This document shows positions 7,171 through 62,783 of a stretch of DNA of 64,000 nt, in pieces. The stretch is taken from contig CP126198.1 of the NCBI GenBank assembly GCA_030272155.1, positions 310,001-374,000 on the forward strand. Direction: 5' to 3'. Origin of the DNA: Tetradesmus obliquus (Eukaryota > Chlorophyta > Chlorophyceae > Sphaeropleales > Scenedesmaceae). Position numbers and translations under genes: made by a program. Numbering within the stretch: the stretch's first letter is position 1; each line of letters opens with the position of its first letter. The notes under the pieces are model-generated. The model searched no databases, was not told the DNA's origin, and saw only the letters and a program-made list of their open reading frames with translations.

Positions 7171-7500
7171 GTTCACACACGTGTCTACCCCCAGCAGCTG
7201 CGCCAGCCCCTCATTGCTGCGCCCGAGCAGGAAGCAGCAACCGAGCTGGCACAGCAGTGTCACTGCCACCAGCACTGCCTCACTCACTGTGCGTTGACAC
7301 ACGTGCCCACCCCCAGCAGCTGCACCAGCCCCTCGTTGCGCTGCGCCCATGCAGGAAGCGGCGGCCGAGCTGACACAGCAGTGTCACTGCCACCAGCACT
7401 GCTTCAATCACTGCGCGTTGACACACGTGCCTACCCCCAGCAGCTGCACCAGTCCCTCATTGCTGTGCCCATGCAAAAAGCGGCGGCCGAGCTGGCTACA
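7171..7500 (-). repeat. Echoes of the RAD7-like C-terminal coding end, about 123-bp period
   Basis: Copies of the segment encoding the last residues of the RAD7-like protein (FLHGHSNEG and following) repeat downstream of its stop. Phase marks (GTTGACACAC-like) lie at 7171, 7293 and 7417, giving spacings of 122-124 bases. The copy at about 7408-7500 is the real exon end. The two others lie beyond the stop codon in the presumed 3' untranslated or flanking DNA. A weaker relic is seen near 6960-6990. Confidence 0.8.
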
Positions 7501-8524
7501 GCCATACACTTTCAGCACACTCAAGCGCTCACAGCTGTCCACCAGGTGACCCAGCGCCCCTTCTGAAAAGTTCCTACAGAAGCTCACATCCAGCTCACGC
7601 AAAACTTCACAGCAGCTGCGCGCGAGTTCCGCCAGCACGCGTGAACTCAGCTGGTGTAATCCGTTCACGCTGAGAACTGCCAGCGTGCCGCGCTGCACCG
7701 CCGGCAGCAGCGCGGCATCAGTCAGCTTGGCGCAGCGCCGCAGAGACAGCAGCCGCAGCTGCCGCGCAGCGCCCAGCACAGCCAACAGCCCATCATCGGT
7801 TACTGCTGTGCATTCATCAAGCACTAGCTCCTCTAGCAGCGAGGCCGCACCCTGCTGCTGCTGCTGCTGCTGCTGCTGGGGTTTGCCTGCGCGGCTGAGG
7901 GCGGCGAAGGCAATGAGCGCTGCGTCGTCCACTGCAGGGCAGCGAGCCAAGCTGAGGGCGCGTAGCTGCAGACAGCGCCCGGCAGCAGACACCACGGCGG
8001 CGTCGACCTGCGCCGGCAGCACAGCGCGAACAGACAAGGCAGGATGCGTTGCAGCACATGCCTTAAATAACCAGCGCAGCAAGTACAACAGCTGCTGTGG
8101 AAAACAGACGGCCCAATGCAGCATAGCATCGCCGAGAAAGCTGCAGCGCACCAAGCAAATGCCATAGCCAAGATATGCCCGCACATGCTTGCGCGGCAGC
8201 ACACGCAGTAGCAGCGAGCAACGGAAGAACCAACACACAGATATAGGCAGCAGGAGAGCATCCGCACCAGCTGCTGCAGCCAAACACACAGAGCGCGCGC
8301 TGCTGCTGCCACATCTGCTGCTGCACCACCCCTCATCCTCACGTCTGGTATGCCATCCAGCTTCAACCGCTGCAGGCTGGCCAGCTGCTGCAGCCACCGG
8401 CACAGAGCACGTGCTGCTGCTGCTGCTGCCTCATCTGCTGCTGCAGCACCCCTCACCTCCAATATGCCGTCCAGCTTCACTCGCTGCAGGCTGGCCAGCT
8501 GCTGCAGACACCGACACAGAGCAC

Positions 8525-8587
<63 letters not shown>

Positions 8588-11384
8588 AACCCTCACCTCT
8601 GGTATGCCATCCAGCTTCACGCGCTGCAGGCTGGCCAGCTGCTGCAGACACCGACACAGAGCACATGCTGCTGCTGCTGCTGCTGCTACTAATATACTGT
8701 CTCTCCCCGCTCACCTCTGGTATGCCGTCCAGCTTCACGCGCTGCAGGCTGGCCAGCTGCTGCAGCAGCCCCGCAATGGCAGCGCCAGGCAGGCCTCTGC
8801 AATCAGACAGATCCAGCACACACAGCTGCGGCGCTGCAGTAGGCAGCTTATGCAGAAAAGAGCCTGCAGCAGCAGCAGCAGCGGCGGCAACGGCGCGCAG
8901 GCAGCAGCACCGTCAAGTGTGCGTGTGGTTGCGCTGTGTGCTGCGCACGCATATCCACGCAACCGACACAGCAAGCGTGCTGCAACACCCCTGGCCCCAA
9001 ACTATGAAGCAGCAGCGCACCAAACTGCTCAGCAACAGCCCCTGCTGCACCACAACCCCTGCTGCACAACACGATGATGAATGCTTATGAACTCTTACAT
9101 GCAAACTGCATCTCACTGTCAACAACAAACCCTGTCCACCAAACACCCCTGCTGCACAACACGCACCTGTCAAGCGTGAAGGCAGAAGGCACCGCCAGCT
9201 CCTGCAAGCCTGGACCAGCCCAACTGCTTGCAACTGACTGTGATACTTCTGTCAACTACATGCAAGATGCAATCTCACTGTCAACAACACACACCTGTCA
9301 GCCGTGAGGCAGAAGGCACCGCCAGCTCCTGCAAGCCAGGAGCAGCCTGCAGCAGCTCCAGCAGCCCTGTATCATTCAGCTTGTATGCACCACCCAGCCG
9401 CAGCACGCGCAGCTGCTGCAGCGGCCCTGCGCCTGCTAGTGCAGCAGCAGCCTCATCGGTGAAGCCCCGCCCGCAGTTACCCAGCTCCAATCGCTCAATC
9501 CTGCAGCACTGCGGCGGTGGCTGCTGCTGCTGGTCATCCTTTTCCTGCAGGTCGTCCCTTTCCTGCAAGTTTTCCTGCAAGCGCTGAACCCCCTGCTGCT
9601 GCTTGGCTGCGGCTTCTCCCGCGTCTGCGTCTGCAGCTGCGCGGCTGCGGCCCACCACCAGCAGCTGCAGCAGCTGCAGCATGGCTGCAGGATCCAGCTG
9701 CACGCAGTCTGGCAGCACAAGCTCACTCGTGAAATCGCTGCCAAAGAGCTGCGCAACTTCCGGGGACAGTGCGCGCCGCGCACATACTGCTGATGCAAGC
9801 TGGCTGCGGATGGGGTCAGGGACGCCCCACAGGGACTCCACGGCGTCGATGTGCGTTACTAACAGGCGCAGCGCGATTTGAAATAGGGGAGGCACCTGAC
9901 AGCTGGGGCGCGGGCCGAGCGCAGGGTCCCTGGAGGGCGCCCACGCCACAACTGCATCTACAGGGCAGAAGTTGCACAGCAAGGCCAAATAGATTAGTGA
10001 GCCATCACTTGCAGGAAGCAATAATCTGGCACAGCGCAGCATGTTGTGCAGCGGCGATGAGTGTCAACCGCTGCACGCGAGCTGCGATTGCCCTGCAGCT
10101 GCACAACGCTGTCCAGTGACCAGCAGGCACTGCGCTGCAGGACAGGACAATGCAGTGCCTCGCTGTGCCTGTCTGTACAGCTACTTTACAAGCTGTGAAT
10201 CCAACAGGAAAACTAATGCTGCTGTGCATAACTTGAGCTGCCACAAGCTACAGGCTGCAGGAGTGCCGAGGGCCCCTTGCTGCGCCCAATGATGTTGCTC
10301 TGTCTGCTGCATCAACAATTGCTGCTACTGCTGCTACCATGGAGCTCACCTTCCTCCTGCTGCCCCTGCTGCAGCTGCTGCTGCTTGCGCTGCTCTGCTG
10401 CTGCCTGCCTCGCGTTGACCAGCTCCACTGCGCTACTCCACGGCCCCAGGCTGCGCGCCTGGTTTGGTGAGACGCATGACAGCCACGTGGCAGGAAGGTT
10501 GGCATGTGAGGTACAAGTGCAGCGAAAATCATTGAGGCGCGTGGCAGTGTTCGATGCTGCAGCGCGGCAAGCACTGTCGCCAGGGCACTTGCTGCAACCC
10601 AGTGTTCAACGCATGGACTGGCTCCAGCTATCAACTGCTGCTGCATACACTGCTTCTCAGCAGCTGTTATGCATAATCGTAATCAAAGCAGCAGTGAGGA
10701 AAGCAATTCTTGCTTTTCCTGCATGCGTTGTCGCTGGATCCTGCTGCGCTTCTGATTGCAGCGCTGTCGTCCATATGAACCACCATCCAGCAGTGCAACG
10801 GCAGATGGCGCAGCAGCGCAGCATGCCAGGGGTACATGCCGAGCGCACCTCATTCTTTCCAGTGTGCACGTTGCCCTCTGCATCGGCATCAGCATCTCCA
10901 AAGTTTGCAAAGTGTGCTGCGCGCCTGCGGCAGGAAGGCGACAGGGCAGTCGGTTGCAGTGGGCAGCGTTGAGAGGTGCAGAGACTGGTCATGGCTGCTC
11001 TTAGCAATCATCCATCAAAGTGTCAAAGTTACTGGTTTCAGGATGCTGCACAATGATGGTTGCAAGCTGAAGGAGGAACGCCCTTAGCAGCTGCATGGAC
11101 TTTAAGCCAAGGCCTAGGCAGGTGCTGTGCCAGCCACACCTGTCCTGTTGGTGACAACGACTCATGCGTAAACACATGCTGCAGATTTGCGTCATTGAGA
11201 GCGTATTCATCGATAATAGAGTACATCAGCAGCTGCTGCCACACCTGCGGGCGATGTCAGCCATTTGCTCCCTGCGGTCCACTGGCTGCTGCTGCTCCGC
11301 TGCTGCATGCTCCGCGCTAGCTTGCCCGTCCACATTTGGCTCGGGATCCTCTGACTCCGATCTTGCTCTCTTGCGGCGAGCCAT
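7408..11384 (-). CDS. RAD7: RAD7-like leucine-rich-repeat protein (nucleotide-excision-repair type)
   Basis: Six exons: 11384-11245, 10924-10849, 10458-10350, 9951-9295, 8863-8715, 8007-7408, joining in frame to 576 residues. The N terminus is basic and acidic (MARRKRARSESED), followed by a helix reading ADIARRRAAHFANF and by LGPWSSAVELVNAR. Both match the order of motifs in plant RAD7-like proteins. Exon 4 starts with WAPSRDP and contains an IDAVESLWGVPDPIRSQL-type block. The rest is leucine-rich repeats of the F-box/AMN1 kind (LDLSDC, LSLARCPAVDDAAL, LVLDECTAVTDDGL, LDVSFCRNFSEGAL), ending in FLHGHSN, a typical RAD7 tail. In yeast, Rad7 with Rad16 recognises UV damage in silent DNA and serves in a cullin ubiquitin ligase. 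The algal role is inferred from family. A Gln-rich spacer lies in the last exon. Echo repeats of exon ends 4, 5 and 6 follow each of those exons. Confidence 0.85.
8340..8770 (-). repeat. Donor-side echoes of RAD7-like exon 5 (three copies) with CTG tracts
   Basis: The true exon 5 ends at 8715 with a block encoding LASLQRVKLDGIPE followed by GTGAG. The same block and its GT donor recur with boundaries at 8597, 8457 and 8343, spacings of 118, 140 and 114 bases. The copies carry small changes (LDGILE, LKLDGIPD). A CTG triplet run of about 60 bases lies at 8526-8587 between copies. Each copy keeps a plausible donor and a CTGCAG that could act as an acceptor. Confidence 0.9.
9101..9345 (-). repeat. 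Donor-side echo of RAD7-like exon 4
   Basis: The real exon 4 ends at 9295 with a block encoding GLQELAVPSA, then a GT donor. A second copy with its own donor ends at 9167, 128 bases downstream in the direction of transcription. A shared string near ATGCAATCTCACTGTCAACA also recurs at about 9101, 9255 and, outside the gene, 7078. Confidence 0.8.
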
Positions 11385-15923: not shown

Positions 15924-15956
<33 letters not shown>

Positions 15957-17673
15957 GGCAGCGGCAGCGGCAGCGGCAGATGTGGGCAGTTGTGCATTGC
16001 CATGCGTCCTTGCCTGCTTATGTGATGTTGTACCTTCCGCCAGCTGCATCAGTAAGCAGCCGCTGCAGCGTCAGTACACCTGCAGCATCCAGCGCCGCGC
16101 TCAGGGCAGGAAAAGTTCAAATGCTTGCATTGAAACCACCCGCCGCAGGCAGCTAGCTGGGTACCCTGTAACACGCGCGCTCAACCATCCTTCTGCGCTG
16201 CTTCCTCACATTCCCAACCCTGTAGGCATCCGGCCGTGGTGCATGACACTGGCCAGCAACTTCAAGTGCCCGGGCATCCGGGAGTACTGCCTGCTGTACG
16301 GCCTGCGCAGCTGTGAGCGGCGCAGCTGCATCAACATGCTGCGCAAGCCCGGCACGGCAATCGTGCTGTACCCAGGAGGTGCTGCTGAGGCGCTGCTGAC
16401 GGAGCAGGGCAAGTCCAACCTGGTGAGGCGGCGGGGGAGTTTGACTGTGTGTTTGACTGTGTGTTTGACTGCGTTTGACTGAGGTTGAGTTCAGCACAGC
16501 AGCCATTGTGCTATACCCTGGTGGGGCTGCAGAGGCGCTGCTGACGGAGCAGGGCAAGTACAACCTGGTGAGGCAGCGGGTTTCACTGTGTGATTGACTG
16601 TGTGTTGAACTGAGTTTGACTGAGTTTGACTTCAGTAAAGCAGCTGCATCAACATGCTGCGCAAGCCCGGCACAGCCATTGTGCTGTACCCAGGAGGCGC
16701 TGCAGAGGCCCTGCTGACGGAGCAGGGCAAGTACAACCTGGTGAGGCGGCGGCGGGGAGTTTGACTGCGTGTCGGACTGTATGTTTGACTGCGTGTTTGA
16801 CTGGGTTTGACTGGGTTTGACTTCAGTACACCAGCTGCACTGGTATCAGGGTTGGTGTGCTGCGGATGCTATACTGAGGACCCAGGCTGCCGCTGCTGCT
16901 GCTGCCGCATGGATGGGGCTGCTGGGGTGCCGATGCTGCTGCAGGTTGCTTTGCCAGCAGCCTGCTAGCTGATCACTCACTTGCACTCCAGCAGGACGAG
17001 GCTGCTGCATTGGCTTCAGCACCGCTGCCACACCTGACACTGCTGACGCCCGCTGCTGCCGCCAAGTTCACAGATCTTCAAGCTTCCCAATGGCTCTGCC
17101 TACCGCCTGCTGCTGGCCACACCTGCTGCTGCTGCTGCAGATCCTGAAGCGCCGCAAGGGCTTTGTGCGCATTGCGCTGCAGACCGGGGCCAGCCTGGTG
17201 CCCGTGTTTGGCTTTGGGGAGACAGACCTGTTTGAGACATACGTGCCTCCACCCAACAGCCTGCTGGCAAAGGCGCAGCGCTTCAGCCACAAGTGAGCAG
17301 CAGCAAGGGTTTTGCGCGTTAAACGCCGGCATGGTTGCAGTGTGTTAGTATTGCATTGTGGCTGCTGCCGTGCCTCCGCCCAACAGCCTGCCGGCCAAGG
17401 CGCAGCGCTTCAACCACAAGTGAGCGCTGCTGTGCTGCTGACCAGCAGAACATAGTCAGACACCGTCAAAAAGCCAAGCACAGTCAAACACACAATCAAA
17501 CACACAGGCGCAGCGCTTCAGCCACAAGTGAGTGGTGCTGTGCTTGAGCTTGAGCGCAGCGGAGGCTGTGAAGTGCCAGTACTGTAAACTTCTGATTGCA
17601 GCATGTCCACCGTATGGCGGTAGCTGAGCGTGAGCCAGCCTGGTGCCACTCACGCTTTAGATCGACGGCCCTC

Positions 17674-17704
<31 letters not shown>

Positions 17705-18382
17705 AGGTACTGGGGCACCAGCCAGCCTCTGTTCAAGGGCAGCGGCGTCTTTGCCGACTGGGGCCTGCTGCCCTTCAGGGCCCCGCTGACCACAGTGGTG
17801 GGTGCGCCCATCCCGGTGGCGGCCATGGACCCAAAGGCAGTGGCGCCTGCGGAGTTTGAGGCTGCGGTTGACGCGCTGCATGCCAAGTACTGCACAGGTG
17901 GGGCGCGGTGTGTGGTGAGATGCATCTTTTGGGGGTCCTTTGCTGTTTGTTTTGACAACTAACAGCGCTGCATGCCAGGTACGGCACAGGTGAGGAGCGC
18001 GGCGTGGTGCTGCAGGCGTGCATGTTCCAAGGCCCGTTGTGGTTCTGACAGGAGACAGCGATGCATGCCAGGTACGGCACAGATGCGGCACTGCGCAGTG
18101 CAATTTGGTGCAAAGGGCAGGCATTCCCTGGGTATCCTTGCTGTTTTGGACGCAGCCCTGCATGCATATGAATGATATGGGGTGAGTTTGAAGACTCAGC
18201 CCTGGTGTCCAACGGCAAACCCACTGCATGTGTGTGCTGCGCCACCTGAAAACTAAATACATATGTTGCCGTGCTGCTACTGCTGCTGCTGCTTGTGTGC
18301 TGCAGCGCTGCAGGAGCTGTTTGATGCCTGGAAGGACCGTCTGGCTCCCAACCGCAAAGGGGACATCACCATTGTGGGCTGA
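14684..18382 (+). CDS. DGAT2: Type-2 diacylglycerol acyltransferase (DGAT2 family)
   Basis: Six exons: 14684-14907, 15745-15917, 16226-16422, 17141-17292, 17707-17897, 18306-18382, joining in frame to 337 residues, a normal DGAT2 length. It should transfer an acyl group from acyl-CoA to diacylglycerol, making triacylglycerol at the ER or lipid droplet. Exon 1 encodes a hydrophobic hairpin (two adjacent membrane segments around residues 40-72). Exon 2 carries [13 protein letters not shown] near residue 107, which is the HPHG active-site motif with Tyr in place of the first His. Exon 3 has RRSC and [10 protein letters not shown], the GGxxE motif. Exons 4 and 5 have [19 protein letters not shown] and VVGAPIPV, all family signatures. 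A TGTAA signal lies 66 bases past the stop. The long intron 1 (837 bases) could hide a further exon, though the exon 1-2 junction is in frame. Introns 3, 4 and 5 each contain two echoes of the exon before them. Confidence 0.9.
15928..15980 (+). repeat. CAG/CAGCGG microsatellite in DGAT2 intron 2
   Basis: Uninterrupted CAG triplets from about 15928 pass into GGCAGC hexamers up to about 15980. The tract begins ten bases after the exon 2 donor. Confidence 0.9.
16325..16756 (+). repeat. Donor-side echoes of DGAT2 exon 3, including the GGxxE motif
   Basis: The real exon ends at 16422. Two further copies of its last 80-110 bases, each still encoding the [13 protein letters not shown] segment and ending in AACCTG plus a GTGAGG donor, end at 16567 and 16740, spacings of 145 and 173. 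TTTGACTG repeats separate the copies. Inclusion of either copy as an extra exon would not keep the frame with the acceptors I see. Confidence 0.9.
17362..17532 (+). repeat. Donor-side echoes of DGAT2 exon 4
   Basis: The exon 4 end (boundary 17292, encoding AKAQRFSHK) is repeated with boundaries at 17419 and 17527, each followed by GTGAG. Spacings are 127 and 108 bases. The first copy retains about 60 bases of exon sequence and the second about 22. Confidence 0.9.
17945..18083 (+). repeat. Donor-side echoes of DGAT2 exon 5
   Basis: The exon 5 end (boundary 17897) recurs at 17989 with a GTGAGG donor and at 18082, where the donor is lost (AGATGC). The spacing is 92-93 bases. Confidence 0.85.
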
Positions 18383-29300: not shown

Positions 29301-29334
<34 letters not shown>

Positions 29335-46500: not shown

Positions 46501-49500
46501 GGCCACGCAGCCCATCAGGATGGCCCGGGGCTGGCTGCGGGTGGCCTTCTGAGTCTCCTCAGCCATGTACTCAGCACTGTCTAGGCCTGTGAAGGCCCAG
46601 GCCGGCAGCAGCAGGCCCAGGCAGACGACGTAGCTGCATATACAAGCAGGCAGGTAGGAAGACAGGCAGGCAGCAGCAGGTATGTTGATGAGACAGCAGC
46701 GTATGCGCTCTGCGCTGTCTAGGCCTTTGAAGGCCCAGGCGGGCAGCAGCAGGCCCAGGCACACGACGTAGCTGCGGCAGGAAATCACAGGCAGAACAGC
46801 AGCCTCAGCAGCAACAACAGAGCAGTACAAGTAGCTGCATATTCAGGCAGGCAGCAGCAGGTTTGTTGGTGTCTCCTCAGCCATGTATTCAGCGCTGTCC
46901 AGGCCTGTGAAGGCCCAGGCCGGCAGCAGCAGGCCCAGGCACACAACGTAGCTGCGGCAGGAAAGCCAGGCAAATGGCAGGCAGGCAAACAGCAATGGCA
47001 ATGCAGCAAACATTACTTGGGCGGTGAGGCGGTGCCCTGTTGGTTTGCGCAGGTCAAGCGCCTGGCAGTACAGCCGTATCTGAGGCATAATTTCATGACA
47101 AGTTATGCCCCGGGGAAAGGTAAGAGATCGTGCTACTGTGGTTCTTGCTGCCGCTCATAGTAAAGGCAGCCACCTTCACAAACAGGCAGCCGCACCCAGA
47201 AACTGTCATTACTGCAGCGCAAGCCAGCGCTGTCAGCAGGGTATGTAAGAGCCCACGCTGCGTCACTCACACTGGGTTGGTGATGCCTGCTGACTCAGCC
47301 TGTGCCGCCTCAAAGTGCCAGTCACTTGCACATCAAGACATTTGAATACAGAAGCTGTAAGAATATGGGTTGTGACAGCGCTGGTGCTGCGTCACTCACA
47401 CTGGGTTGGTGATGCCTGCCGCCTCAGCCTGTGCTGTCTCAAAGTGCCCAAACACGTAGCTGGCTGGCTGGTAAGAGGTGGCCATGGCGGGAAGCACGAT
47501 GGTCAGCACCACCGCACCAACCAGGTTCCATACACCGGCAAACTCCTGCGGCAATGCAGAAGGGACAGCAGCAGCAGGGAATGAATTGCCGCAGGAGTCA
47601 CGCAAAGCCGGCGGCACACTCGTGAGCACCACTGCAGCAACCAGGTTGCATATGCCAGCAAATTCCTGCAGCAACGAGGAATAAAAAGGAAAGCAGCAGG
47701 AGTGATGTACGGCCGGCAGCACGATGGTCAGCACCACCGCACCAACCAGGTTCCATATGCCGGCAAACTCCTGCAGCAACGAGGCATGCACAGCAGCAGC
47801 AACAGTTATGCACGACAGGCAGCACGATGGTCAGCACCACCGCACCAACCAGGTTCCATATGCCGGCAAACTCCTGCGGCAACGGAGAATGGACAGCAGC
47901 AGCAGCAGCAGCAGCAAGAGTTATGCGCAGCCGGCAGCACGATGGTCAGCACACCGCATGAGCCAGGCTCCATATGCCCGCAAACTCCATGCGGCGTGAC
48001 TTTGAGTGCTGCAAAGCTTGATCTTGCGAACAAGACAATTCATCTAAGCAGCTGGCATGCACCCATGCATACATGCTCAGGGCGCTGCTGCATGGCGTGG
48101 CAGCCCGTGGGAAGGATGTGTACAGCGCAGTACTCTGCAGCTGCTTTTCTGTTGCATATGGGATGCAGAAGGCACCAGCGCAGCAGCTGCATCAAACCAC
48201 ATCTCACGTTCATGCTTATGTTGACCTTGTGCTGGTGCGCACAGCGCCGCTGTTACATATGGCATGCAGAAGGCGCCAGCGCAGCAGCTGCATCAAACCA
48301 CCACTCACGTTCATGCGTATGTTGACCTTGTGCTGGTACGCAAAGCGCCGCTGGTGTGCTGTTACATATGGCATGCAGAAGGCGCCAGCGCAGCAGCTGC
48401 ATCAAACCACCACTCACGTTCATGCGTATGTTGACCTTGTTGCTGGTGCGCACAGCGCCGCTGCTTTGCTGCTGCTGCTTTGCTGCTGCTGCTTTGCTGT
48501 TGCTGCTTTGTTGCTGCTGCTTTGCTTCTGCTGCTTTGCTGCTGTGCAGGATGCTGAGGGCGCAGGCAGAGCAGCTGCATCAAACCACCACTCACGTTCA
48601 TGCGTATGTTGACCTTGTGCTGGTACGCAAAGCGCCGCTGCTGTGCTGTTACATATGGGATGCATAAGGCGCCAGCGCAGCAGCGGCATCACCCCACCAC
48701 TCACGTTCATGCGTATGTTGACCTTACCGCTGGTGCGCACAGCGCCGCTGCTTCGCTGCTGCTGCTTTGCTGCTGTGCAGGATGCGGAGCGCACAGGCAG
48801 AGCAGCGGCATCACACCACCACTCACGTTCATGCGTATGTTGACCTTGTCTCCAAGCGAGTTGGCAGCAGTGGCAGCAAGGCACCAGGCCACGTATATGC
48901 CATACATCTGACCTGCGACAGCAGCAATCCCGCACCGTGCAAAGCGCTGTCAGCAGATGCTGCACATATAATGAACGGAACCACCCACACACAACCTGCA
49001 AGTAGTGATTTACTCTCTAGTCGAACTGCCAGCACCACAGCGCCCAGTGAGCTGCAGAAAGACCTTACCGCCACAAGCAGCAGCAACTGACAGTGCAATG
49101 GTGGACAGAGATAGGATGTGGCCGGATGCGTCACCTTTGGAGCACTGCCACAGCAGCCAGTGTGCACGAGCTGCAGGACATTCAAACTGCTACCAGCAGC
49201 AGCAACTTACAGGGCAATGGCACAGCCGGCTGTGTCACCTTAAGAGAACCCCGGGGCTCTGTGCCGTTGTATGCTGCCACCATGTTGACCAGGGTGATGG
49301 TCACGCCACACAAGATATCATAAGAGCGCACAACCCGACATGCATCCTCACGGAGCAGTCCTCCTACAGTCAATGCTGCCTATGTTGCAGCGCCGCAGCA
49401 CCAAAGCACGTAGGCTGCAGGAAATTATCACAGCACCCAGCAGCAGCAGATGAAGCGCAACAGCAGGGCATGGCCGTCTGATTTTACCTTTGGAGAACTC

Positions 49501-50813: not shown

Positions 50814-52274
50814 GCATGCTGGTTGGTCAGGCATGCGGCGGGCCCCAGCTGCCACGCTGCACTCACCACGGGGCCTCCAAAGATCAAGGCGACGTCAAAT
50901 GAGGCTGCGGCAGGCAGGCAAGCAAGTTAAAAGGTGTCAGAAGGCTGGCGCAGAGTGCCGCACAGTGGCCGAGAATGGCAGCGGCAGCTGGGTTGCATCC
51001 TGTTGCTGTTGACATCGTCAGCATCAGCTGCACTTGAGCGCTGTGTGGAACATAACAGGCAGTGATGTTGCCAAGACCTGTTGCTGGCCCTTGCATGCAC
51101 TGAGCAGTTGTATCACTCATCTCTGCCTACTCTGCAGGCCCATCCTGGGTTGCTGCCACCTGTCATGGCAGAGGCAGCCATGCGGCAGGCACAGCTACCG
51201 CTGCCTACCAAACAGCCGGGCTTGAACAATCAGGCCTGCCTCAGCGCAGGGACTATTGATTGCGCCACTCGCCCGCTAACTGATGATGCTGGTGGGATGC
51301 AGGGCTGACTGCAAGCAGCTAGCAGGCCCTGAGGGGATTGCATACAACCGCCACCAAGAGCAGACATTCAGGCCTCAGCTCAAGCACTGACAGCTGCGCT
51401 GCATGCTCACCGATGACGCTGGTGATGATGCAGGGCCGACTGCCAAGCATATTTGGCGCAGGCACTGACAGCTGCCCTGCCCACTCACCGGTGATGCTGG
51501 TGAGGATGCTCATGGAGCTCATCCACAGTTGCACAACAGCCGGGCTTACCAACCAGGCCTGCCTCAGCGCAAGGACTGATAGCTAAGCCGCTCGCCCACT
51601 CACCGTTGATGCTGGTGCGGATGCAGGGCCGACTGCCAAGCAGCTAGCAGGGAGTTGCACACAACCGCCACTATCAAGAGTAACAATCTCGGCCTCAGCG
51701 CAAGCACTGACAGCTGCGCTGCGCACTCACTGATGATGCTGGTGAGGATGCAGGGCCGACTGCCAAGCAGCTAGCAAGAGTGAACATTTAGGCCTCAACG
51801 CAAGGACTGACAATCGCCTAAAAAGCCGTCGCGCCACTCACCAATGATGCTGGTGAGGATGCTCATGGAGCTCATCACGATCATGGCTGTGGAGAAGCCC
51901 GTCCATGCCCTGCACAGCAACACCCAGCGCAGCGCAGCAACGCAGCGCAGCGCAGCGGTAGCACGGCTAGCTCAGCACAGCTGTATTAACCAACAGCGCT
52001 GTTAACTTGGTTTCACTGTCATAAAGAGCCTTGGCAACGATAATGCCTGTCTGCAGCCAGCGGGCTGTTTACTGATGGAACATCAGTGCTTGAATATTTC
52101 AGCAGCAAACTGCAGCACATGCAGCAACAGCACTGTGACGCAACCGCCACTTCCAGCAGCAGCAGCAGCAACAAACCCTGACCTGTCCAGGACTGGAGTG
52201 ATGCCCAGGGACCGCAGTTTTGCATCGTCGTCCTCTACCAGGACCTGTGCATCGATGTCTTTCCTAGCGTCCAT
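43549..52274 (-). CDS. Amino-acid permease, APC superfamily (BAT1/GABA-permease type)
   Basis: Thirteen exons: 52274-52183, 51909-51842, 50904-50867, 50472-50369, 49984-49929, 49616-49488, 48912-48827, 47545-47400, 46633-46450, 45577-45521, 45045-44924, 44675-44470, 43913-43549, all in frame, 550 residues. The start MDARKDIDAQ leads into DDAKLRSLGI, the usual cytosolic entry of BAT1-like carriers. Family marks then come in order: AWTGFSTAMIVMSSMSILTS, FGGPVVAVWGW, NMAELSSAYTTSGGMYYW (helix 2-3), ASYVFGHFET, AWAFTGLDSAEYMAEET (helix 6 and the TGxDxxxxxxEE block), ILFSYGRDGLVP, and a last exon with FLPGLFKLG and FSLPTEYPVT. Such proteins move amino acids or GABA across plasma or organelle membranes, and the substrate cannot be read from the sequence. 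Seven exon ends are echoed in the introns. The gene is 8.7 kb long for a 1.65-kb coding sequence. Confidence 0.9.
44050..44280 (-). repeat. Minisatellite of about 20 bp in permease intron 12
   Basis: About ten degenerate copies of GTGACTAGTGCCTGGCGACTA-like units. CTAG recurs throughout. The array sits within the intron between the last two exons. Confidence 0.85.
45100..45310 (-). repeat. Acceptor-side echoes of permease exon 11 (two copies)
   Basis: The exon 11 start (45045, after CTGCTGCAG, encoding YDVFLQ) is echoed at about 45140-45170 and 45265-45290. Both copies read TATGATGTGCTCCTGC-like sequence and are preceded by CAG-type acceptors. The spacing is about 120 bases. Confidence 0.85.
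45598..45740 (-). repeat. CAGGCAGG/CAGCCAGG simple repeat in permease intron 9
   Basis: A low-complexity array of GCCAGGCA and GGCAGGCA units. The frames through it give spurious Cys/Leu/Pro or Gly/Arg/Gln proteins. Confidence 0.9.
46690..46960 (-). repeat. Acceptor-side echoes of permease exon 9 (two copies)
   Basis: The exon 9 start (46633) encodes YVVCLGLLLPAWAFTGLDSAE. Copies of this 5' half with their own CCGCAG acceptors begin near 46770 and 46950. The outer copy extends to AEYMAEET and the inner one ends earlier. Only the copy at 46633 continues to a donor, which is why it is taken as the exon. Confidence 0.9.
47560..48010 (-). repeat. Acceptor-side echoes of permease exon 8 (four copies)
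   Basis: The exon 8 start (47545, after CCGCAG) encodes EFAGVWNLVGAVVLTIVLPA. Four more copies lie upstream at about 47600-47670, 47708-47775, 47820-47880 and 47930-47990. Most are preceded by CTGCAG or CCGCAG and some have frame-preserving changes (EFAGICNLVAAVVL). Only the 47545 copy continues into ASYVFGHFET. Confidence 0.92.
48200..48730 (-). repeat. Donor-side echoes of permease exon 7 (five copies)
   Basis: The exon 7 end (boundary 48827) encodes KVNIRMN and is followed by GTGAGTGG. The block and its donor recur with boundaries at 48705, 48596, 48418, 48309 and 48208, spacings of 122, 109, 178, 109 and 101 bases. The extra length of the third interval is a GCTGCTTT-type expansion. Confidence 0.93.
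49225..49320 (-). repeat. Echo of permease exon 6
   Basis: A copy encoding TLVNMVAAYNGTEP lies downstream of the true exon 6 (TLVDMVAAYNGTEP, boundary 49488). A second, weaker echo of the last few codons lies at about 49125-49145. Confidence 0.85.
50165..50330 (-). repeat. Donor-side echoes of permease exon 4 (two copies)
   Basis: The exon 4 end, ACTAGTACATGC on the plus strand (boundary 50369), recurs near 50284 and 50173 with the same GTGAGTG donor. Exon sequence of 40-55 bases is conserved in each. Confidence 0.88.
51270..51760 (-). repeat. Donor-side echoes of permease exon 2 (five copies)
   Basis: The end of exon 2 (boundary 51842, encoding SILTSII) with its GTGAGTGG donor is repeated near 51730, 51603, 51488, 51410 and 51283. 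The 51488 copy retains the longest exon segment (ATGAGCATCCTCACCAGC). The oldest-looking copy, 51283, has lost the donor. Confidence 0.88.
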
Positions 52275-53255: not shown

Positions 53256-53288
<33 letters not shown>

Positions 53289-56200
53289 GGCAGCGGCTGC
53301 ATCTGCACCGGCCCGCCAGCAGGCGGTCCAGACGCGCCAGCTGCTGCGGCCTGCTGCTGCGCTGCAGTAGACAGCCAGCCATCAGGAGGTCCACCAGCTG
53401 CTGCTGGCCCTGCTGCCGGCACACTCATCCCACCACCACCACCACCATTATTACCAGCCCCATTATTGCCATTACCTCTGTTGCTGCCAGGTGGGGGGCT
53501 GCCAGGGGCCTGTGGGGCCCTGCCAGCCATCCGCGCTGCTGCTTCCGCAGCGCTGCGAGCCTGCTGCGCAGCAGCCACAGCCGCCGCTGCTGCTGCAGCG
53601 ACATCCGCGTAACCCCCAGTGCCAGCGGAGGAAGAGCTGGGCTGCACCTGCTCACTGCCGCTGCTGGCTGCTGCTGGTGGTGCTGCTGCTGCAGGTGGCG
53701 GCGCTGCTGCTGCTGCTGGAGGCTGCCCGTAGCCTACCGGCGGGATGTATCCTGAGTGGATCTGCTGCTGCTGCTGCTGCTGCGCCTGGCTGCTGCTGGC
53801 TGCGGGGATGCATGGCAGCGGCACACCAGTGCCGCCGCCAGGGGGGTCCTTGGGCAGTATGTCCTGCTGCGCCCTGTACATGTCCCACTCCACGCCATAC
53901 TCCTGCAACAGCAGGAAGGATTTGCAACCAGTGCCAAACTGAGGAGGCATCGGCGATGCAGCTAGGGACGCAATCGTGCTCAGCATTGCAAATGCAAGGC
54001 AACAGTGCGACGCATGCTCTTGCGGCAGCACACGGGGGATGCAGTCAGGCATGCGCACGGAGGTGCCAACAGCCATGCGCACGGGCTGCAACAAGGATGC
54101 ATACAGTCGAACAAGGGAGCATGTGTGTCCCAGCTTGAGACAGCATGTGCCGCACATGCTGCTGGCACAGCGTTCCACAACATTGCTCTCGTTTGGCACC
54201 CACAATCGTGCTGTTGACAGCCCACAATGCCGACACCGGCACTCTCGCGCAGGTGACTACACAAACTGCATATGTGGAACACCACACTGCTGCACGCACC
54301 TGCGCAATCTCGCTGAGCGTCTGCAGCTTCAGCGCAGGCTCCAGCACACCATGCGCTGCCATTTGCTGCTGGCACAACGCCGCACACACCCAAGCATCTT
54401 TCACATAAAAAACAACACCACGATACACGCGCGCGACCACTGCCTCCATGCGCATAACCACCACACAGCTGCCGCGCACCTGTGCAATCTCGCTGAGCGT
54501 CTCCAGCTTGAGTGCCGGCTCAGGGGGCTCTATGGTGAGGCAGCGCTGCACACCTACACAGACCCTCGTCCTTCCAACAACACCAACCATAGCAACAGCC
54601 CTGCTCTCATGCAGGCAACTGCTGCCCGCCTGTTTGGCACACCACGCCGCTGCACACACCTGCGCCTGTGCTGCCCGCCTGTGGCACTGCGGCTACAGCG
54701 CACCTGTGCAATCTCGCTGAGTGTCTCCAGCTTGAGCGCAGGCTCAGGGGGCTCAATGGTGAGGCAGCGCTGCAGGTTGTCGTTGACCATCCAGCGGCGG
54801 CAGCTGACATCAGAACACGCCTCGCTCACATACTCCTGTTGAATGAGATGCGGCAGGTGCGGCACATACAGGCAGCAGCAGCAGCGGACAAAAATGGGGG
54901 TGCGGTTGTCTTGAGGTCCATGAAGCTGCAGCCGTGTAGCAGTGCAGCAGCGGTCAGTGCTTGCTGCAGGCCCACCATTCCTCAGCGCGGACGGCGCATC
55001 GCCCTCGCCCTCCGCCCAGCTGCAGCGCGAAAGAAAAGGCACGGCTAGCGCACGCACAAGAATCAATCACCCACGCCACAGCTTGTTGCGCTTTTGCACA
55101 GAATATCTGCGCCTGCTCAACAGCTGAGGTGAAACAGCACCAACAGACAGCTGCGGCTGCAGGCCATTGCAGTGCTGCATTCCACGCGCACGCCACCTTG
55201 TCTACTTCTGCGCTCAGGCACCTGCCGCTGCACACCAGCTGATCACAGCAACCCCTGGCAGCCTGCTGCTGCTGGCCGCACCTTGCCGTAGTTCTGCGCA
55301 AACACGTATACTTACGCAACAGCTGAAAGGCAACGCACGCATCTTCACATCCAGATCCACATCCACATCCAGATCCACATCCACATCCACATCCACAGCA
55401 CCATCACCATCATGCTGGCCACACCTTGCCGTTTTTCTGCGCAAACATCTTGTGCAGCACGCAAGTGTCTGCACCTATACACCAGATGATCACAGCAACC
55501 CCTGGCAGCCTGCTGCTGCTGGCCCCACCTTGCCGTTCTTCTGCGCGAACAACTGCGCTCATACAGCATCTACAAGAAAACGCGCGTATCTTCAAACCCA
55601 CATCCACATCCACATAATCCACAACATCATCATGCTGCGCACCTTGCCGTACTTCTGTGCAAACATCTGTGCTTTACAAAACAGCTGAATAGCGCAGGAA
55701 GCCTGCTGCTCTCACCTTGCCGTACTCATGCGCAGACACCTGCGCTCATGCACATCGAAGCAGGACATAACAAGACAACATGAACAACAGCTGAGCAAGA
55801 CAAGGCAGCCTGCCGCTGCCAGTCTCACCTTGCCGTACTTCTGCGCGAACATCTTGTGCAGCGTGGTCAGCTCAGGCAGGTCAGGCACGCGGCTGGCCGC
55901 ATACAGCACGCTGGACAGCGCCTGGTCGGGGACAGCAGCAGCGGCAGCAGCAGCAGGACAAGAGCAGTAGTGTGATGGATGAAAAGACTGCCAATCTGCT
56001 GCTGTAGATTGTTCGCACAATGCAGCTGTGTGGCTGTTGCGGCCAAGCAAGCAGCCTTCTCCTGTGTTGGCAGCAGCTGCTGCGCATACGTGCTGTGCAT
56101 ATGCAGTCCTGCACATGGCACGCGCGCGCAACCACAGGCCGAAATGCACTGCTGCGCGTGCGGCTAAGCGCACATCATATGCATGGCACCCAGCTACACA

Positions 56201-57050
56201 TCATTGCTATAGTGCGCCTTGCCAGCCAGCTGCCTGCCGCGCTTCCTCGCGTGCGCCCGCGCTGTGTGGTGGGAGGTGATGGGCTTTGCGCTTGCGCTGA
56301 CCAACAAGCCCAGCTGTGCTGTCACGCATGCACAGCCTGGTAGGAAGCACGGCTGCTGCATGCTGGCGCGCGCAGCTGCAGCTGCTTCATAGTAAATCAC
56401 ATGCCTGCCAGAACCTCTCCGGGCTGCATGCCATGCCAGCTAGCCCGTACTCGACTGCCGCAGCCCATTCAACACAGCCTGCTGCTGCACAGGTACGCCT
56501 AACTCCCTTCAACCCCGCTCCCCTGCCCCACCTTGATCATGTCCCAGGGGATCTCCTTGCTGTTGGCCACCAGGCTGGAGCGCACAGCGCAACAATGGCT
56601 GCTGCACGCTCACGCGCAAAGCTGCAGGTACTTGACAGTGACTCAAATGCCTCGAATCCTTCTCCCACCCACCTCGATCATGTCCCGAAGGATCTCTTTG
56701 CTATTGGCCACCAGGCTGGAGCACACCATTCCCAATAATGGCTGCTGCACGCTCACGCGCAAAGCTGCAGGCGCTTGACGGTGAATCAGACGCCTCTAAT
56801 CCGCTTACCCACCCACCTCAATCATGTCCCAGGGGATCCCCTTGCCGTTGGCCACCAGGCTGAAGTGCCCAGTGTTAAAAACAGTTGCTCCATGCTTGCA
56901 CGCAAAACTGCAGGTGCTTTACAGTGAATCAGATGCTTTGAATCCGTCTCCCACCCACCTCAATCATGTCCCGCGGGATCTCCTTGCTGTTAGCCACCAG
57001 GCTGGAGCGCACCGCCAGCAGCTCAAGGTACAGCTCCAGGATCTCGTACG

Positions 57051-57083
<33 letters not shown>

Positions 57084-57155
57084 CATCAATCAGAAAGCCA
57101 TGCCAAGCAGCTCAAGGTACAGCTCCAGGATCTCACACGCTGTGCAGCAGCGTGG

Positions 57156-57193
<38 letters not shown>

Positions 57194-57255
57194 CATGAGC
57201 GTATCAGTCACAGTGCCCCACAGCTGCTCCAGGTACAGCTCCCGGATCTCAAACA

Positions 57256-57289
<34 letters not shown>

Positions 57290-58571
57290 CGCATAGGTCA
57301 ACGTGGCACAAAGCAGCTCCAGGTACAGCTCCAGGATCTCATACGCTGGCAGCAGCAGCAGCAGCAGCAACAGCGCAGGCGCGCGTCAATCACAGTAGCA
57401 CACAGCAGCTCCAGGTACAGCTTCAGGATCTCATATGCTGAGCAGGGCAGGCGGCAGCAACGGCAGCGGCAGCAGCAGCAGCAGCGCAGGCGTCAATCAC
57501 AGTAGCCCACAGCAGCTACAGGTGCAGCTCCCGGATCTCGTACACTGGCCAGCATCAGCAGTGAAACAGCAGCAGCAGCAGCAGCATTGCCCACCTGTGA
57601 GGGTGAAGGCCTCGCGTACGACCGCCTCCACCAGCAGTGCAGCAGCAGCAGCGGCAGAGTGACCAAGCACATCAATGCCCACCTGTGAGGGTGAAGGCCT
57701 CGCGGATGACTGCCTCCACGCGGATGCGCGCATAGTCCTGCTTGCCGGCGCGCAGCAGCTCAGCAATGTCCTTGCGGTACTGCTTCATCTGCGGCAGCAA
57801 GCAGCAGGCAGCGGCACCAGCACATGATGTGCATGGTGCGTGTTTGACTCCAGTGCCTGTATCTTGCGTCTGCATTTTTTGTGCTAGCTGGAAAAGCAAG
57901 CAGGACTTTGTAGAGAGCACATGCCCAACGACGGGTGGTTGCGCCAGCAGTTGCAATGTATGCAAGATGCAGATTCCTGCAGAATTGTGCACTGAGACAC
58001 AATGTGGAGCTGCTGTGGCAGACAAAACCTGGTTCAAATTTGTTGCTGTGCTGTGCCTTACAACAGACGCATTTTTTGCCGAGGCCCAGTGCCACACTGC
58101 ACAACACACGGCAGTGCCTTCATGTGCACTCTTGTAATGATACTGCTGCCCTTGGACGGGGTTACTGCTGCCAGTACAGTACTGCTACACTTGCAACCAT
58201 GCAAGCAGGTGCTGTCTGCTGCTGGAAGCTGCTGCTGCTTGCTGGTGCCTCAAGAGCGCAATGCTTTCAGCTCAACCCAGCGCGTACAAACCATGTTTTA
58301 ATCAACACCTGATGATGATCAGATGCCTAAACACTGCTCGGAGGTCTCCGGCACAGAAGTCCCACTACCAAGGCGTTTGCCAACCAACTCACGTGCATGT
58401 TCCGCTTGTTCTTCAGCAGCTTGATCCTCCCCAAACATAGACGACATGTTGTTTCGCTGCATCAAGGCAGAAGCAGGCCGATCAAGCGCTGCACAAGGCA
58501 AGGGCTCCAACTCACACACAGTCAAGGCTCACGCACCACTTCGCCGAGTTGAACTTGAGAGCTCCTAACAT
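52913..58571 (-). CDS. IST1: IST1-like ESCRT-III regulator
   Basis: Seven exons: 58571-58537, 58456-58393, 57788-57683, 57050-56959, 55921-55829, 54835-54704, 53902-52913, all in frame, 503 residues. The start MLGALKFNSAKC and the following GRIKLLKNKRNMHMKQYRKD match the first helix of IST1 proteins. Then come YARIRVEAVIREAFTLT, EILELYLELL, SKEIPRDMIEA, VPDLPELTTLHKMFAQKYGK and a VNDNLQRCLTIEPP segment, so the IST1 domain fills residues 1 to about 174. IST1 binds Did2/CHMP1 and Vps4 on endosomes and adjusts ESCRT-III disassembly in vesicle sorting and abscission. The remaining 330 residues are disordered Pro/Ala/Gln/Gly-rich sequence ending in a short charged helix (YDELQKRFEALKKA). That could be a Vps4-binding MIM-like tail, which is inference. 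Four of the six introns carry echoes, and exon 4 is echoed on both sides. Confidence 0.9.
54290..54560 (-). repeat. Donor-side echoes of IST1-like exon 6 (two copies)
   Basis: The exon end encoding LKLETLSEIAQ (boundary 54704) recurs with boundaries near 54482 and 54302 and GTGCG-type donors. The first copy retains about 60 bases of exon and the second about 50. Confidence 0.9.
55270..55745 (-). repeat. Donor-side echoes of IST1-like exon 5 (five copies)
   Basis: The exon end encoding MFAQKYGK (boundary 55829) with its GTG donor recurs near 55715, 55640, 55530, 55427 and 55281. The copies keep 25-45 bases of exon sequence with a few changes. ATCCACATCCAC simple repeats are interleaved at about 55340-55400. 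Confidence 0.9.
56520..56880 (-). repeat. Donor-side echoes of IST1-like exon 4 (three copies)
   Basis: The exon end encoding LVANSKEIPRDMIE (boundary 56959) is repeated near 56818, 56673 and 56533 with GTGGG-type donors. Each copy preserves 55-60 bases, and the codons are still readable with few substitutions. Confidence 0.92.
57100..57550 (-). repeat. Acceptor-side echoes of IST1-like exon 4 (five copies)
   Basis: The exon start (57050, encoding AYEILELYLELL) with its CTGCTGCCAG acceptor recurs near 57135, 57250, 57345, 57435 and 57540. Each is preceded by a CTG tract of variable length, so the array alternates exon-start echo and triplet tract. Confidence 0.92.
57586..57640 (-). repeat. 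Donor-side echo of IST1-like exon 3
   Basis: The exon end encoding VREAFTLT (boundary 57683) is repeated once with boundary near 57593 and a GTGGGC donor. Confidence 0.88.
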
Positions 58572-58901
58572 AATGATATGATCTGGTTACAGCTGTCACA
58601 GCGCTCGAGCAAACAAAATGTAGCGGGTGTATAGAGCAGCACAGCCAGTCCCAACCTTCCTACTGTCACAGCTGGGTCAGAGACACAATCTGGTGAGCAT
58701 GCACAACTAGATGCAAAAAACCATCTGCATGGTATAATTGCACACAAGTACAGCTATGCCTGTACAGTGCAGCACACCATCAGCCAGTGACAGAGTGACA
58801 AAACCGCTCCAGGAACCCTACTCATAACACAGTGTTACTAGTTGCGCATTGGCTAAAGGCGTCCGGTGACACACAAGCTACATTACTGGCAATTCCTGCT
58901 G
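58572..58901. other. Short IST1-like upstream / GST downstream region
   Basis: Only 330 bases separate the IST1-like start codon from the GST-like stop codon, both minus strand. It must hold the GST 3' end and the IST1-like promoter. No clear TATA or polyadenylation motif was seen. Confidence 0.45.
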
Positions 58902-60097: not shown

Positions 60098-60128
<31 letters not shown>

Positions 60129-61185
60129 GTGGGATGCGGCTACCTAATGAGGGTGAGGCAGTTGGAGTTTGCTGCAGGCACGCCCTGAACCCCTCCCACC
60201 AGCAGCAGCAGCAGCAGCAACAGCAACAGCCTGTCTGCTGCAGATTCTGAACACTTCCAGTGCCTGCCAGCAACAATTCACACAGCGCCAAGCGCTACAG
60301 CTGCTACCCATCCACTGCATTTTACTATCACCTGCCCCAGCGCACTCTGCACCAGTTGCGTCCAGCTGCCTGTGCCCTCACTGCTGCTGCCACTGCTGCT
60401 GCCACTGCTGCTGTTTTACGCCCATCATCACCTGGGCCAATGCATTCTGCACAAGTTGTGTCCTGCTACACTGCCTGTGCACTGCTGCTGCCACGCGCTC
60501 ACCGGCTCTGTGCTTGCCAGCAGCTCTGCCTCTGCTGCTGCCACTGCTGCTGCCACTGCTGCTGCCACTGCTGCTGCCACTGCTGCTGCCACTGCTGCTG
60601 CCACTCCTGCTGCCACTGCTGCTGCCACGCGCTCACCGGCTCTGTGCTTGCCAGCAGCTCAGCCTCTGGTGCCAGCACTGATGATGTGTAGCGCTGCACA
60701 GCGCCAGGCTCCATCTTCGACACGACCCACACATTCTGCACGGCGCGCGTAGCATGGCAAACAGGAGATTCAACAGCAACACAGTGTGATTGTGTGCCTG
60801 GTGCAGTGGTCTGGTCAAGGCCTGGTAGTGTCCTTCCAGGTCTGGTCTGCTGCAGGGCAGCATGTGCTTTGCACTAAGCATGCTGCAGCAAGCGGCTGCA
60901 GAGTCAGGCAGCATGCAGTGGTCTCCACAGTCTGACAAGATGATTCAACTGGCCTCCGCAAGCGTTTCCGCGCTGCTCTGTGCACATACACCCGGGGATG
61001 CTTGCTGTGTGTTTAGAGTGTCTCTTCAGGGTGTATGGTCACGGCATCACACAGTGTGCATCCACAGTAGCCGGTCAACGCAAACGCCACTTCGCACCTT
61101 GAGCTTCTCCCGCAGCTCGCTGACAGCATCCAGCACCATGTCGATGGCAGCACTGTCTTCCAGGTCGCCAGAGCCGTACAGCTCT

Positions 61186-61216
<31 letters not shown>

Positions 61217-62783
61217 CAGATGGCGTGGGCTGTCAGCAATGCACTGGCATGTGCAGCTCACGCACAAGCTGCTGCTGCTGCTGTTTGGGCAGCGCTGAGC
61301 TCCACCATGCCGCGCGCAGAGCCTCAAAATGTTGTGTTGCATGCATTGGCGGCTAAGGGGCCTGTAGATTGCGTGCACTACAAACCGGGCCTGGTGCAGC
61401 AGGCGATGCCAGCTGTTAGCGGGCGCCACTCACTGTATTTCCGCCCAAGGTGACGCAGGATGGCCTGAACAAGGTGCCAGGTGGCCGGCAGCAGGCGGCA
61501 GCAACACAAGAGCGGTATTGATTTCGTGTCCAGAACGCATTTTGCTGGCAGACAGTGGTAACATGCCAACGGCTGGGTGTAGGATGTGTCACAACTGCTG
61601 CAAGCGGTATGGTTGCCGCGGGGCGTCCGCAGCGCCAGCTGTTGCCTGCATGCACTTGCACAGCCCTGTGCAGCGTTGCAAGCTGCTGTGCTGCCCGGCC
61701 AGCAATCCAAGCGCCATAGCAGCGCCAGCGTACTATGCTGGTAGCAGCAAGCCTCAACAAAAACTCACACATGCCAGCATGACAAGCACCAGAGCTCAGA
61801 GTCGTGATGGTAGCTACAGATCGTGGCAGACACACCCAAGTCTGCCGCCGCTCACCATGGACTGCACCAGGTTGATCTGTGCCATCAACAAGAGCCAGCA
61901 TGCCAGGCAGTAAGTAAGGCTATGCTCATGTCAGCAGAGCACCAATCACTGCAAACTCACCATGGACTGCACCAGGTGCCAAATCCGTAAGGCAAGGGAT
62001 GCATAGATGTTTCTACTTGTCACCAGCCTGCGGGCGCTCAAAACATAAAACGCTCACCATGGACTGCACCAAGTCGATTTTTGCGTTGACCTCGTCCACG
62101 AAGCGAGGCATCTGCCGAAAAGGGAAGCTGTCCAGATCGCGCCGCACCAGCGCGTGCAGCGGCTCAACGGGCGGCTCAAACCAGGGCTGCTGCATCAGTG
62201 CTAGCACCAGCCTGGCAGCAGCAGCAGCAGCAGCAGCGTTGCATTTTTTGCATTTTTGCATGGCAATTGAGTGCGATCATGGGTGTGATCCTGTGCAAAT
62301 TGTTGTTCTGCTAGCCAGGTAGCCCAGCAGGGAGTAAGAAAGCACAACAGGGACTTTGCAGATCCATTCTGCATACTTGCAGGCAGCGCATACCAGAACA
62401 GCTGTGCAACTGCACACTCAGAGTTGTGCAGCAGCACTGCTGTTTGAAACTGTATCAGGCAGTCCACCTTCATCACTAGGTTCATGACACAGAGCTAGGT
62501 GAAGGCAACATCAATATGCTGTGTGTGGCGTTGCACAATTTCACCTGATGGGCTCAGCGCGGCCCCGCACAGGGTAGTAGTGCAGCACTGGCACGTTGCT
62601 GGTGGCTGGTGTCGCACAAATCAACCAGCACAGCAGGCGGTTAGCAGCCCTGTCCCTGTTGCTCTCGTAGTTAGTGATGCTGGAGGTGATATAAGCAAAA
62701 ACTTCACCCAAGTGATGTAGAGCATAGGGCACAAAACTGGTGCCAGCGTGCAATGCACGCTCAGCGTCCAATGCTTGCTGCAC
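58902..62783 (-). CDS. Glutathione S-transferase-like protein (sigma/mu-like N-terminal domain)
   Basis: Exons: 62783-62545 (tentative), 62211-62058, 61464-61434, 61183-61098, 60735-60637, 60095-59808, 59480-59390, 58999-58902. Exons 2-8 join in frame. The thioredoxin-like domain begins VPVLHYYPVRGRAEPIR, with a Tyr at the usual catalytic position and the RGRAEPIR glutathione-site block. It continues PFRQMPRFVDE (the cis-Pro loop) and DLVQSMAILRHLGRKY, with the QS that grips the glutathione glutamate. The C-terminal domain has WFVGERLSIADIAVADL, the conserved N-capping region. Exon 6 carries an insertion of about 60 Gly/Ala/Ser/Asp-rich residues before that block, unusual in the family. In exon 1 the only in-frame Met lies 64 codons before the domain. 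A short separate first exon is likelier, so the start is unsure. Expected role: conjugating or reducing electrophiles with glutathione in the cytosol. Confidence 0.78.
60485..60630 (-). repeat. Echo of GST-like exon 5 and CTGCTGCCA microsatellite
   Basis: One copy of the exon 5 end (boundary 60637, encoding LLASTEP, then GTGAGC) lies at about 60490-60525. Between them is a (CTGCTGCCA)n array, about ten units of 9 bases. CTGCCACTG units also occur at 60380-60415. Confidence 0.88.
61850..61990 (-). repeat. Donor-side echoes of GST-like exon 2 (two copies)
   Basis: The exon end encoding DLVQSM (boundary 62058) with GTGAG recurs near 61961 and 61857. The outer copy keeps about 30 exon bases. Confidence 0.88.

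What the first reader, a model, noticed from the sequence alone, without database searches (positions are those of the whole stretch)
7171..62211. Introns built from tandem echoes of the adjacent exon ends and their splice sites
Six genes (RAD7-like, DGAT2, SBP-box, permease, IST1-like, GST-like) carry diverged direct repeats of 20-110 exon bases plus the splice site, at about 90-220 bp spacing, next to the exon they copy. Donor-side echoes lie after the exon and acceptor-side echoes before it. I count roughly fifty. Three other genes in the window have none or almost none, so it is not a trivial composition effect. It could record intron lengthening by repeated slippage or template switching across splice junctions, or supply decoy splice sites. 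I know of no established name for it.
Basis: partly seen in the sequence, partly recalled or inferred. Interest (0 to 1): 0.93.

Follow-up and report, generated by a model that had tools for sequence, protein, structure and literature searches.

The report
Introns lengthened by exon-end duplications
In what looks like a green alga's genome, many introns hold one or more decayed tandem copies of the neighbouring exon end with its splice site, about 120 bases apart, which seems to be one way these introns grow.

Summary
In six regions (314 kb, one genome) direct repeats under 3 kb apart outnumber inverted ones 405 to 3. With an ab initio gene finder I wrote, 46 of 255 tested splice junctions and 36 of 128 introns carry an exon-anchored echo. 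The nearest echo lies 88-163 bp away in 35 of 46 cases (mean 123, SD 19), 186-266 bp in the other 11. Introns with echoes are longer (median 561 against 335 bp; 298 after subtracting echo units). Five of the six named genes are supported; the GST-like gene is not, and "RAD7" is only LRR-like.

Best reading: recurrent short tandem duplications straddling splice junctions are tolerated because the exon-proximal copy is still spliced; the side rule follows from geometry. Low-complexity artefact is rejected; dispersed introners are unlikely.

Either the copies descend from diverged coding alleles or echoes are partly constrained. Unresolved: no RNA, long reads or relatives were available.

The parts
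8267..8740 (-). LRR-like gene: array, period about 114-118, donor-like sites at 8342, 8456, 8596, 8714
7151..7502 (-). LRR-like gene: array, period about 119-124; no shared splice signal found
9156..9347 (-). LRR-like gene: donor of exon 9295-9664 and its downstream echo 9156-9220 (offset 128)
16322..16839 (+). DGAT2: array with donor-like sites at 16423, 16568, 16741
   Evidence: Pfam DAGAT
17242..17544 (+). DGAT2: donor 17293 with echoes 17369-17425 and 17503-17532
17873..18088 (+). DGAT2: donor 17898 with echo 17965-17999 (offset 92)
25433..25737 (-). Repeat pair (offset 216) with shared donor-like sites at 25437 and 25653, in the supposed SBP-box gene
   Evidence: SBP domain itself at 31306-32238
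26471..26709 (-). Repeat pair (offset 112) with shared donor-like sites at 26546 and 26661, supposed SBP-box gene
46450..46980 (-). Permease: exon 46450-46633 and two acceptor echoes upstream (46708-46775, 46871-46955)
   Evidence: Pfam AA_permease_2
47257..47448 (-). Permease: donor of exon 47400-47545 and its echo 47259-47319 (offset 129)
47486..47995 (-). Permease: acceptor of the same exon with four upstream echoes, the farthest without AG
   Evidence: read by eye
48135..48849 (-). Permease: donor KVNIRMN|GTGAGT, exon copy plus five downstream echoes, period about 101-122 (one unit 178)
   Evidence: read by eye
51211..51876 (-). Permease: array with four donor-like sites (51488, 51603, 51730, 51841)
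54280..54835 (-). IST1: donor of exon 54704-54835 with echoes 54468-54550 and 54295-54341
   Evidence: Pfam Ist1
55229..55921 (-). IST1: donor of exon 55829-55921 with three echoes
56351..57015 (-). IST1: donor of predicted exon 56955-57110 with three echoes
57016..57583 (-). IST1: acceptor of predicted exon 56955-57110 with upstream echoes, mixed with GCA repeats
57585..57788 (-). IST1: donor of exon 57683-57788 with echo 57585-57631 (offset 88)

Best explanation
The genome undergoes frequent local tandem duplications of roughly 90-160 bp. When one straddles a splice junction it copies the exon end, the splice site and some intron. The copy still attached to the rest of the exon goes on being spliced, so the protein is unchanged, and the outer copy becomes an intronic echo. 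Echoes add about 120 bp each, can be re-amplified into arrays and decay, so introns grow from their ends; duplications inside exons are mostly removed by selection. Shown here: the tandem anatomy, spacing, sidedness and association with intron length. Inferred: the duplication mechanism (slippage, or repair synthesis followed by end joining), the selective filter, and that splicing ignores the echoes.
For: Direct:inverted 405:3 over 314 kb. 46 of 255 junctions and 36 of 128 introns with strict echoes; nearest offsets 88-163 in 35 of 46 and 186-266 in 11 of 46. Side rule 53 correct against 11 wrong over 248 junction windows. Echo introns 561 against 335 bp (p = 2e-6), 298 bp after subtraction. 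Whole-unit arrays by eye. Echoes carry frameshifts: 16 of 21 indels.
Against: In 16 of 30 simple pairs the spacer shows no detectable similarity to where plain tandem duplication would put its copy, although exon parts are mostly 81-97% identical. Exon-echo differences are too synonymous for a neutral echo. Echo AG conservation exceeds chance. Echo-subtracted lengths come out shorter than echo-free introns (p = 0.009) and 2 of 36 are negative. Gene models are predictions without RNA support.
Confidence: 0.75

Rival explanations
1. Exchange between diverged alleles is involved: a repair or crossover event out of register by about 120 bp joins the exon end and intron start of one allele to the exon end and intron of another (or later recombination separates the two). 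Exon-echo differences are then mostly older, synonymous allelic differences, and spacers are diverged allelic introns. This refines the best explanation and does not exclude it.
For: Single-echo junctions 46 synonymous to 28 non-synonymous, bound 41%. Polarised: exon-derived 19 syn/6 non, nearest-echo-derived 19/18, i.e. equal synonymous clocks but an echo constrained for part of its path. Weak spacer similarity in 14 of 30. Stops and frameshifts show echoes are broken now.
Against: No allele or strain data. Needs large allelic divergence (synonymous, order of 0.1, my estimate). Closest echo-echo pairs too few to test (3 syn, 3 non). Parsimony polarisation can be wrong if duplication order is misjudged.
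Confidence: 0.4
2. Echoes are functional: alternative splice sites or exon pieces kept by selection.
For: Synonymous excess; stops 3 against 11.6 expected from random substitutions; echo AG intact 31 of 31 (p = 7e-4).
Against: 16 of 21 indels shift frame; echo GT 40 of 48 intact, no excess; the copies are exon ends starting in mid-exon in the cases read; stops are not rarer than expected among the non-synonymous changes present (my ratio).
Confidence: 0.12
3. Assembly artefact: fragments of a second, diverged haplotype placed in tandem.
For: Exon-echo differences look allelic, and some spacers are unrelated.
Against: Arrays of several near-identical units, e.g. the Clp protease exon plus four echoes; frameshifts in echoes, though these could be read errors; a preferred offset near 123 bp; no N in the five regions checked.
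Confidence: 0.1
4. Introners or another dispersed element family.
For: Repeated insertion-like copies inside introns; one of four echo-bearing queries also had four short matches on C6 (34-85 bases, 79-88%), in a CTGCCTGC-rich tract, not followed up.
Against: Three of four echo-bearing queries match only their own locus; copies are of the local exon, not of a shared element. The search skips very common words, so absence is not proof.
Confidence: 0.02
5. Generic CTG/CAG low complexity.
For: CTG-rich acceptors and many CAG repeats; antisense control finds shared splice-like signals in 21 of 77 pairs against 42 of 77 sense.
Against: Low complexity masked; swap null 99th percentile 18; copies carry exon-specific codons.
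Confidence: 0.01

Closest known systems
Tandem genomic duplication crossing an intron-exon boundary (potato RdRp, PMC4974935; abstract and introduction read)
   Same: A tandem duplication spans an existing intron-exon boundary and copies splice signals.
   Different: There one event created a new intron in one gene; here junction echoes are found at 46 of 255 junctions, often in arrays, and extend introns rather than demonstrably creating new ones.
Rogers model of intron gain by AGGT-containing exon duplication (described in the introduction of PMC4974935, with ATP2A1 as example)
   Same: Short tandem copies of exon sequence end up in an intron without changing the protein.
   Different: There the exon segment is internal and a new intron arises; here an existing splice site lies inside the copied unit. 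AGGT in the copies was not counted.
Internal gene duplication (Gao & Lynch 2009, cited in PMC4974935; the paper itself not seen)
   Same: Local duplication within genes, sometimes with intron parts.
   Different: I could not compare sizes or frequencies.
Introners (PMC9860276, seen only as a search listing)
   Same: Repeated growth of intron sequence across many genes.
   Different: Introners are dispersed copies of one element; here each copy is of the local exon end.
Mutually exclusive exons (recalled)
   Same: Tandem similar exon sequence in one gene.
   Different: Echoes read here are exon ends with one splice site, some with frameshifts.

Membership tests
Tandem genomic duplication crossing an intron-exon boundary | Direct, nearby copies that include exon bases and the adjoining splice site | tested here: met
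Tandem genomic duplication crossing an intron-exon boundary | Whole unit duplicated head to tail, spacer included | tested here: inconclusive
   Clear in some arrays; 14 of 30 simple pairs show spacer similarity at p<0.05
Intron gain by tandem duplication (Rogers model) | A new intron at a position that lacked one in relatives | not testable with these tools
   No related genomes are held for this one
Intron gain by tandem duplication (Rogers model) | AGGT in the duplicated exon segment supplying both splice sites | not tested
   Considered; seen by eye in one array only
Introners | Same element dispersed at many loci | tested here: not met
   3 of 4 queries single-locus; the fourth has only short matches elsewhere
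Mutually exclusive exons | Complete exon copies with both splice sites and intact frame | tested here: inconclusive
   Search windows held at most 100 exon bases; cases read start in mid-exon; 16 of 21 indels shift frame
Mutually exclusive exons | Use in mRNA | not testable with these tools
   No RNA data

The most novel reading that the evidence does not exclude
A genome-wide intron-growth process with a preferred spacing near 120 bp acts across splice junctions, and each echo preserves an allele-level, mostly synonymous snapshot of its exon because it arises by out-of-register repair between diverged alleles. Introns would then keep a datable archive of old exon alleles and a stock of spare splice sites.
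Probability: 0.3. Interest if true: 0.88.

Novelty: new variant of a known kind. Interest (0 to 1): 0.7.

Why it matters
How introns change length is rarely traceable to single events. Here about 19% of predicted intron bases (12,414 of 66,205) can be assigned to one event type with a direction and a unit size. The mean intron of T. obliquus, the likely species, is 462 bp against 230-302 bp in the four other algae of the same table in PMC5966456, which such a process could help explain. Echoes also offer ready splice sites for new isoforms, and their synonymous signature asks how the copies are made. With strain genomes and RNA all of this is directly testable.

Tried and rejected
Self-trained HMM gene finding: one search drifted into CAG repeats and, 22 models were dominated by long repeat-rich ORFs; all were dropped. 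The version used takes amino-acid composition tables recalled from general knowledge, masks period-3 repeats and uses softened splice matrices. Exon borders are predictions and some are wrong.

My idea that similarity always stops abruptly at the splice site was tempered: with gapped alignment many echoes extend 40-60 nt into the intron, and a nested duplication explains one abrupt case.

The divergence-binned counts (pairs of 4% or less: exon-echo 14 syn/2 non, echo-echo 1 syn/8 non), the unpolarised total (232/116) and (echo-unique 71 syn, 77 non, 4 stop; exon-unique 26/5) count some changes several times or mix lineages; I rely. The permissive echo search (238 hits at 110 junctions) admitted noise and was replaced by the strict one.

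Junction targeting is not claimed. By my hand count, 22 of 42 simple pairs touch a predicted exon, 3 are intron-only and 17 lie in unassigned DNA. Window scans show either-side echoes at 32% of 90 donors, 24% of 86 acceptors, 26% of 657 intron-interior, 17% of 222 exon-interior and 9.5% of 1469 unassigned windows, so junctions do not exceed intron interior.

Paired nicks as a source of tandem duplications in plants were searched without a relevant listing; that idea is recalled only. The novelty statement rests on listings (open-licence PMC only), of which I opened two papers (PMC5966456 passages; PMC4974935 abstract and introduction).

Full report
Setting. The window lies in a 104.7 Mb genome of 17 contigs, G+C about 0.57-0.58 in the regions read. 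The values given for Tetradesmus obliquus in PMC5966456 (GC 57%, mean intron 462 bp; passages seen) fit. The species is inferred; no name was given and no relatives are held.

Observation. Direct repeats less than 3 kb apart outnumber inverted ones 77:1 in the window and 38:1, 109:0, 75:0 and 96:1 in four control regions; a region fetched later as a check gives 10:0. The window's repeats form 27 arrays. By eye the permease gene shows the pattern on four junctions: a donor KVNIRMN|GTGAGT followed by five echoes, four acceptor echoes before EFAGVWNLVGAVVLTIV (the farthest without AG), one donor echo, and two acceptor echoes before SYVVCLGLLLPAWAF.

Gene models. No annotation or RNA was available, so I wrote an HMM gene finder after three self-trained versions failed. 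Pfam supports AA_permease_2, DAGAT, Ist1, GST_C, Transmemb_17, PANTS-like and, in a control region, a Clp protease, and SBP; LRR hits were below the curated cut-off, and the 1097-aa ORF 28012-31302 gave none. The finder misses exons and sometimes calls echoes as exons; 17 of 207 exons were removed as echoes over all six regions. Predicted genes with under 150 coding bases were dropped.

Side rule. Against a swap null (99th percentile 18, maximum 31), donors have downstream echoes in 24 of 90 and upstream in 6 of 90; acceptors upstream in 19 of 86 and downstream in 5 of 86. Check region: 6 of 36 against 0 of 36, and 4 of 36 against 0 of 36. Together 53 right against 11 wrong (p = 5e-8). This is expected from geometry once junction-spanning duplications are tolerated.

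Frequency and spacing. With stricter alignment (exon part of 24 bases or more) 46 of 255 junctions and 36 of 128 introns have an echo (1 of 256 junctions skipped as low complexity). Echo introns by region: C5 10 of 24, C1 8 of 16, window 8 of 28, C2 6 of 36, C3 2 of 17, C12 2 of 7. Nearest offsets: 35 within 88-163 (mean 123, SD 19) and 11 within 186-266, about twice that. By its settings the search could have seen offsets down to about 54. TRF rows show a matching gap: 15 rows with period 46-90, 36 with 91-150 (overlapping rows may describe one array). Repeats in unassigned DNA have similar offsets.

Length. Introns with echoes have median 561 bp, those without 335 bp (p = 2e-6). Subtracting echo units gives 298 bp, slightly shorter than echo-free introns (p = 0.009), with 2 of 36 values negative, so the subtraction overshoots somewhat. 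Echo units make 12,414 of 66,205 intron bases.

Splice signals. Of 77 window repeat pairs on an assumed gene strand, 42 share a sense splice-like signal and 21 an antisense one, so the PWM signal alone is a weak argument. Among strict echoes AG is intact in 31 of 31 scored acceptors (3 of 34 not scorable) and GT in 40 of 48 scored donors (4 of 52 not scorable); the first exceeds chance (p = 7e-4), the second does not. Echoes of one array are not independent.

Divergence. In 78 strict echoes at 39 junctions (five regions) 447 of 4651 exon-part bases differ, 60% at third positions; in-frame stops 3 against 11.6 expected from random substitutions; 16 of 21 indels shift the frame. Some changes are counted more than once there. 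At junctions with exactly one echo there are 46 synonymous and 28 non-synonymous single-change codons; a spectrum from 133 non-coding repeat pairs predicts 26% synonymous if random, and at most 41% if a constrained exon and a neutral echo diverge for equal times (p = 2e-4). Polarised with a second echo: exon-derived 19 syn/6 non, nearest-echo-derived 19/18, the latter against 26%, p = 8e-4. Closest echo-echo pairs give 3/3, too few to decide. The check region alone gives 14/7 exon-echo. So the echo lineage seems to have been coding for part of its path although many echoes are broken now. Time spent as an exon of another allele before duplication explains this; so would partial function.

Spacers. 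Of 30 simple two-copy pairs with a spacer of 40 bp or more, 14 spacers resemble the expected flank at p<0.05 on either side (about 3 expected), 6 at p<0.01. Some duplications were clearly whole units, one was blurred by a nested duplication; in others a different intron follows each copy, as allelic divergence would give.

Alternatives. Three of four echo-bearing queries match only their own locus; the fourth also has four short matches on C6 in a CTGCCTGC-rich tract, not followed up. Assembly artefact is unlikely but not excluded.

Literature. PMC4974935 (abstract and introduction) reviews intron gain by tandem duplication and reports one duplication crossing an intron-exon boundary. No listing describes a genome-wide pattern of this kind; only open-licence papers were searched.

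Verdict. A real, genome-wide variant of a known event type, with an unexpected spacing and an unexplained synonymous signature.

Noticed in passing
window 8526-8587, 30199-30273, 53257-53287 and control regions: The genome is rich in CTG/CAG microsatellites, and predicted acceptors end in TGCAG|G after CTG-rich tracts rather than a plain pyrimidine tract.
   Followed up: no
window 44062-44264: A 14-bp (42-bp higher-order) minisatellite, consensus GTGACTGGCGACTA, just upstream of the last large permease exon.
   Followed up: no
window 45602-45737: A CAGG tetranucleotide array of about 35 copies.
   Followed up: no
C2 2.00-2.05 Mb (L022-L026) against the other regions: Direct-repeat density varies tenfold between regions: 10 to 109 per 50 kb.
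   Followed up: partly
G000:C6:5390831-5391091: Four short matches to the permease echo region, probably the CTGCCTGC tract, possibly a paralogue with its own echoes.
   Followed up: no
window 56955-57110: The predicted IST1 exon start lies in a long CTG run read as poly-leucine, so the true acceptor is uncertain.
   Followed up: no
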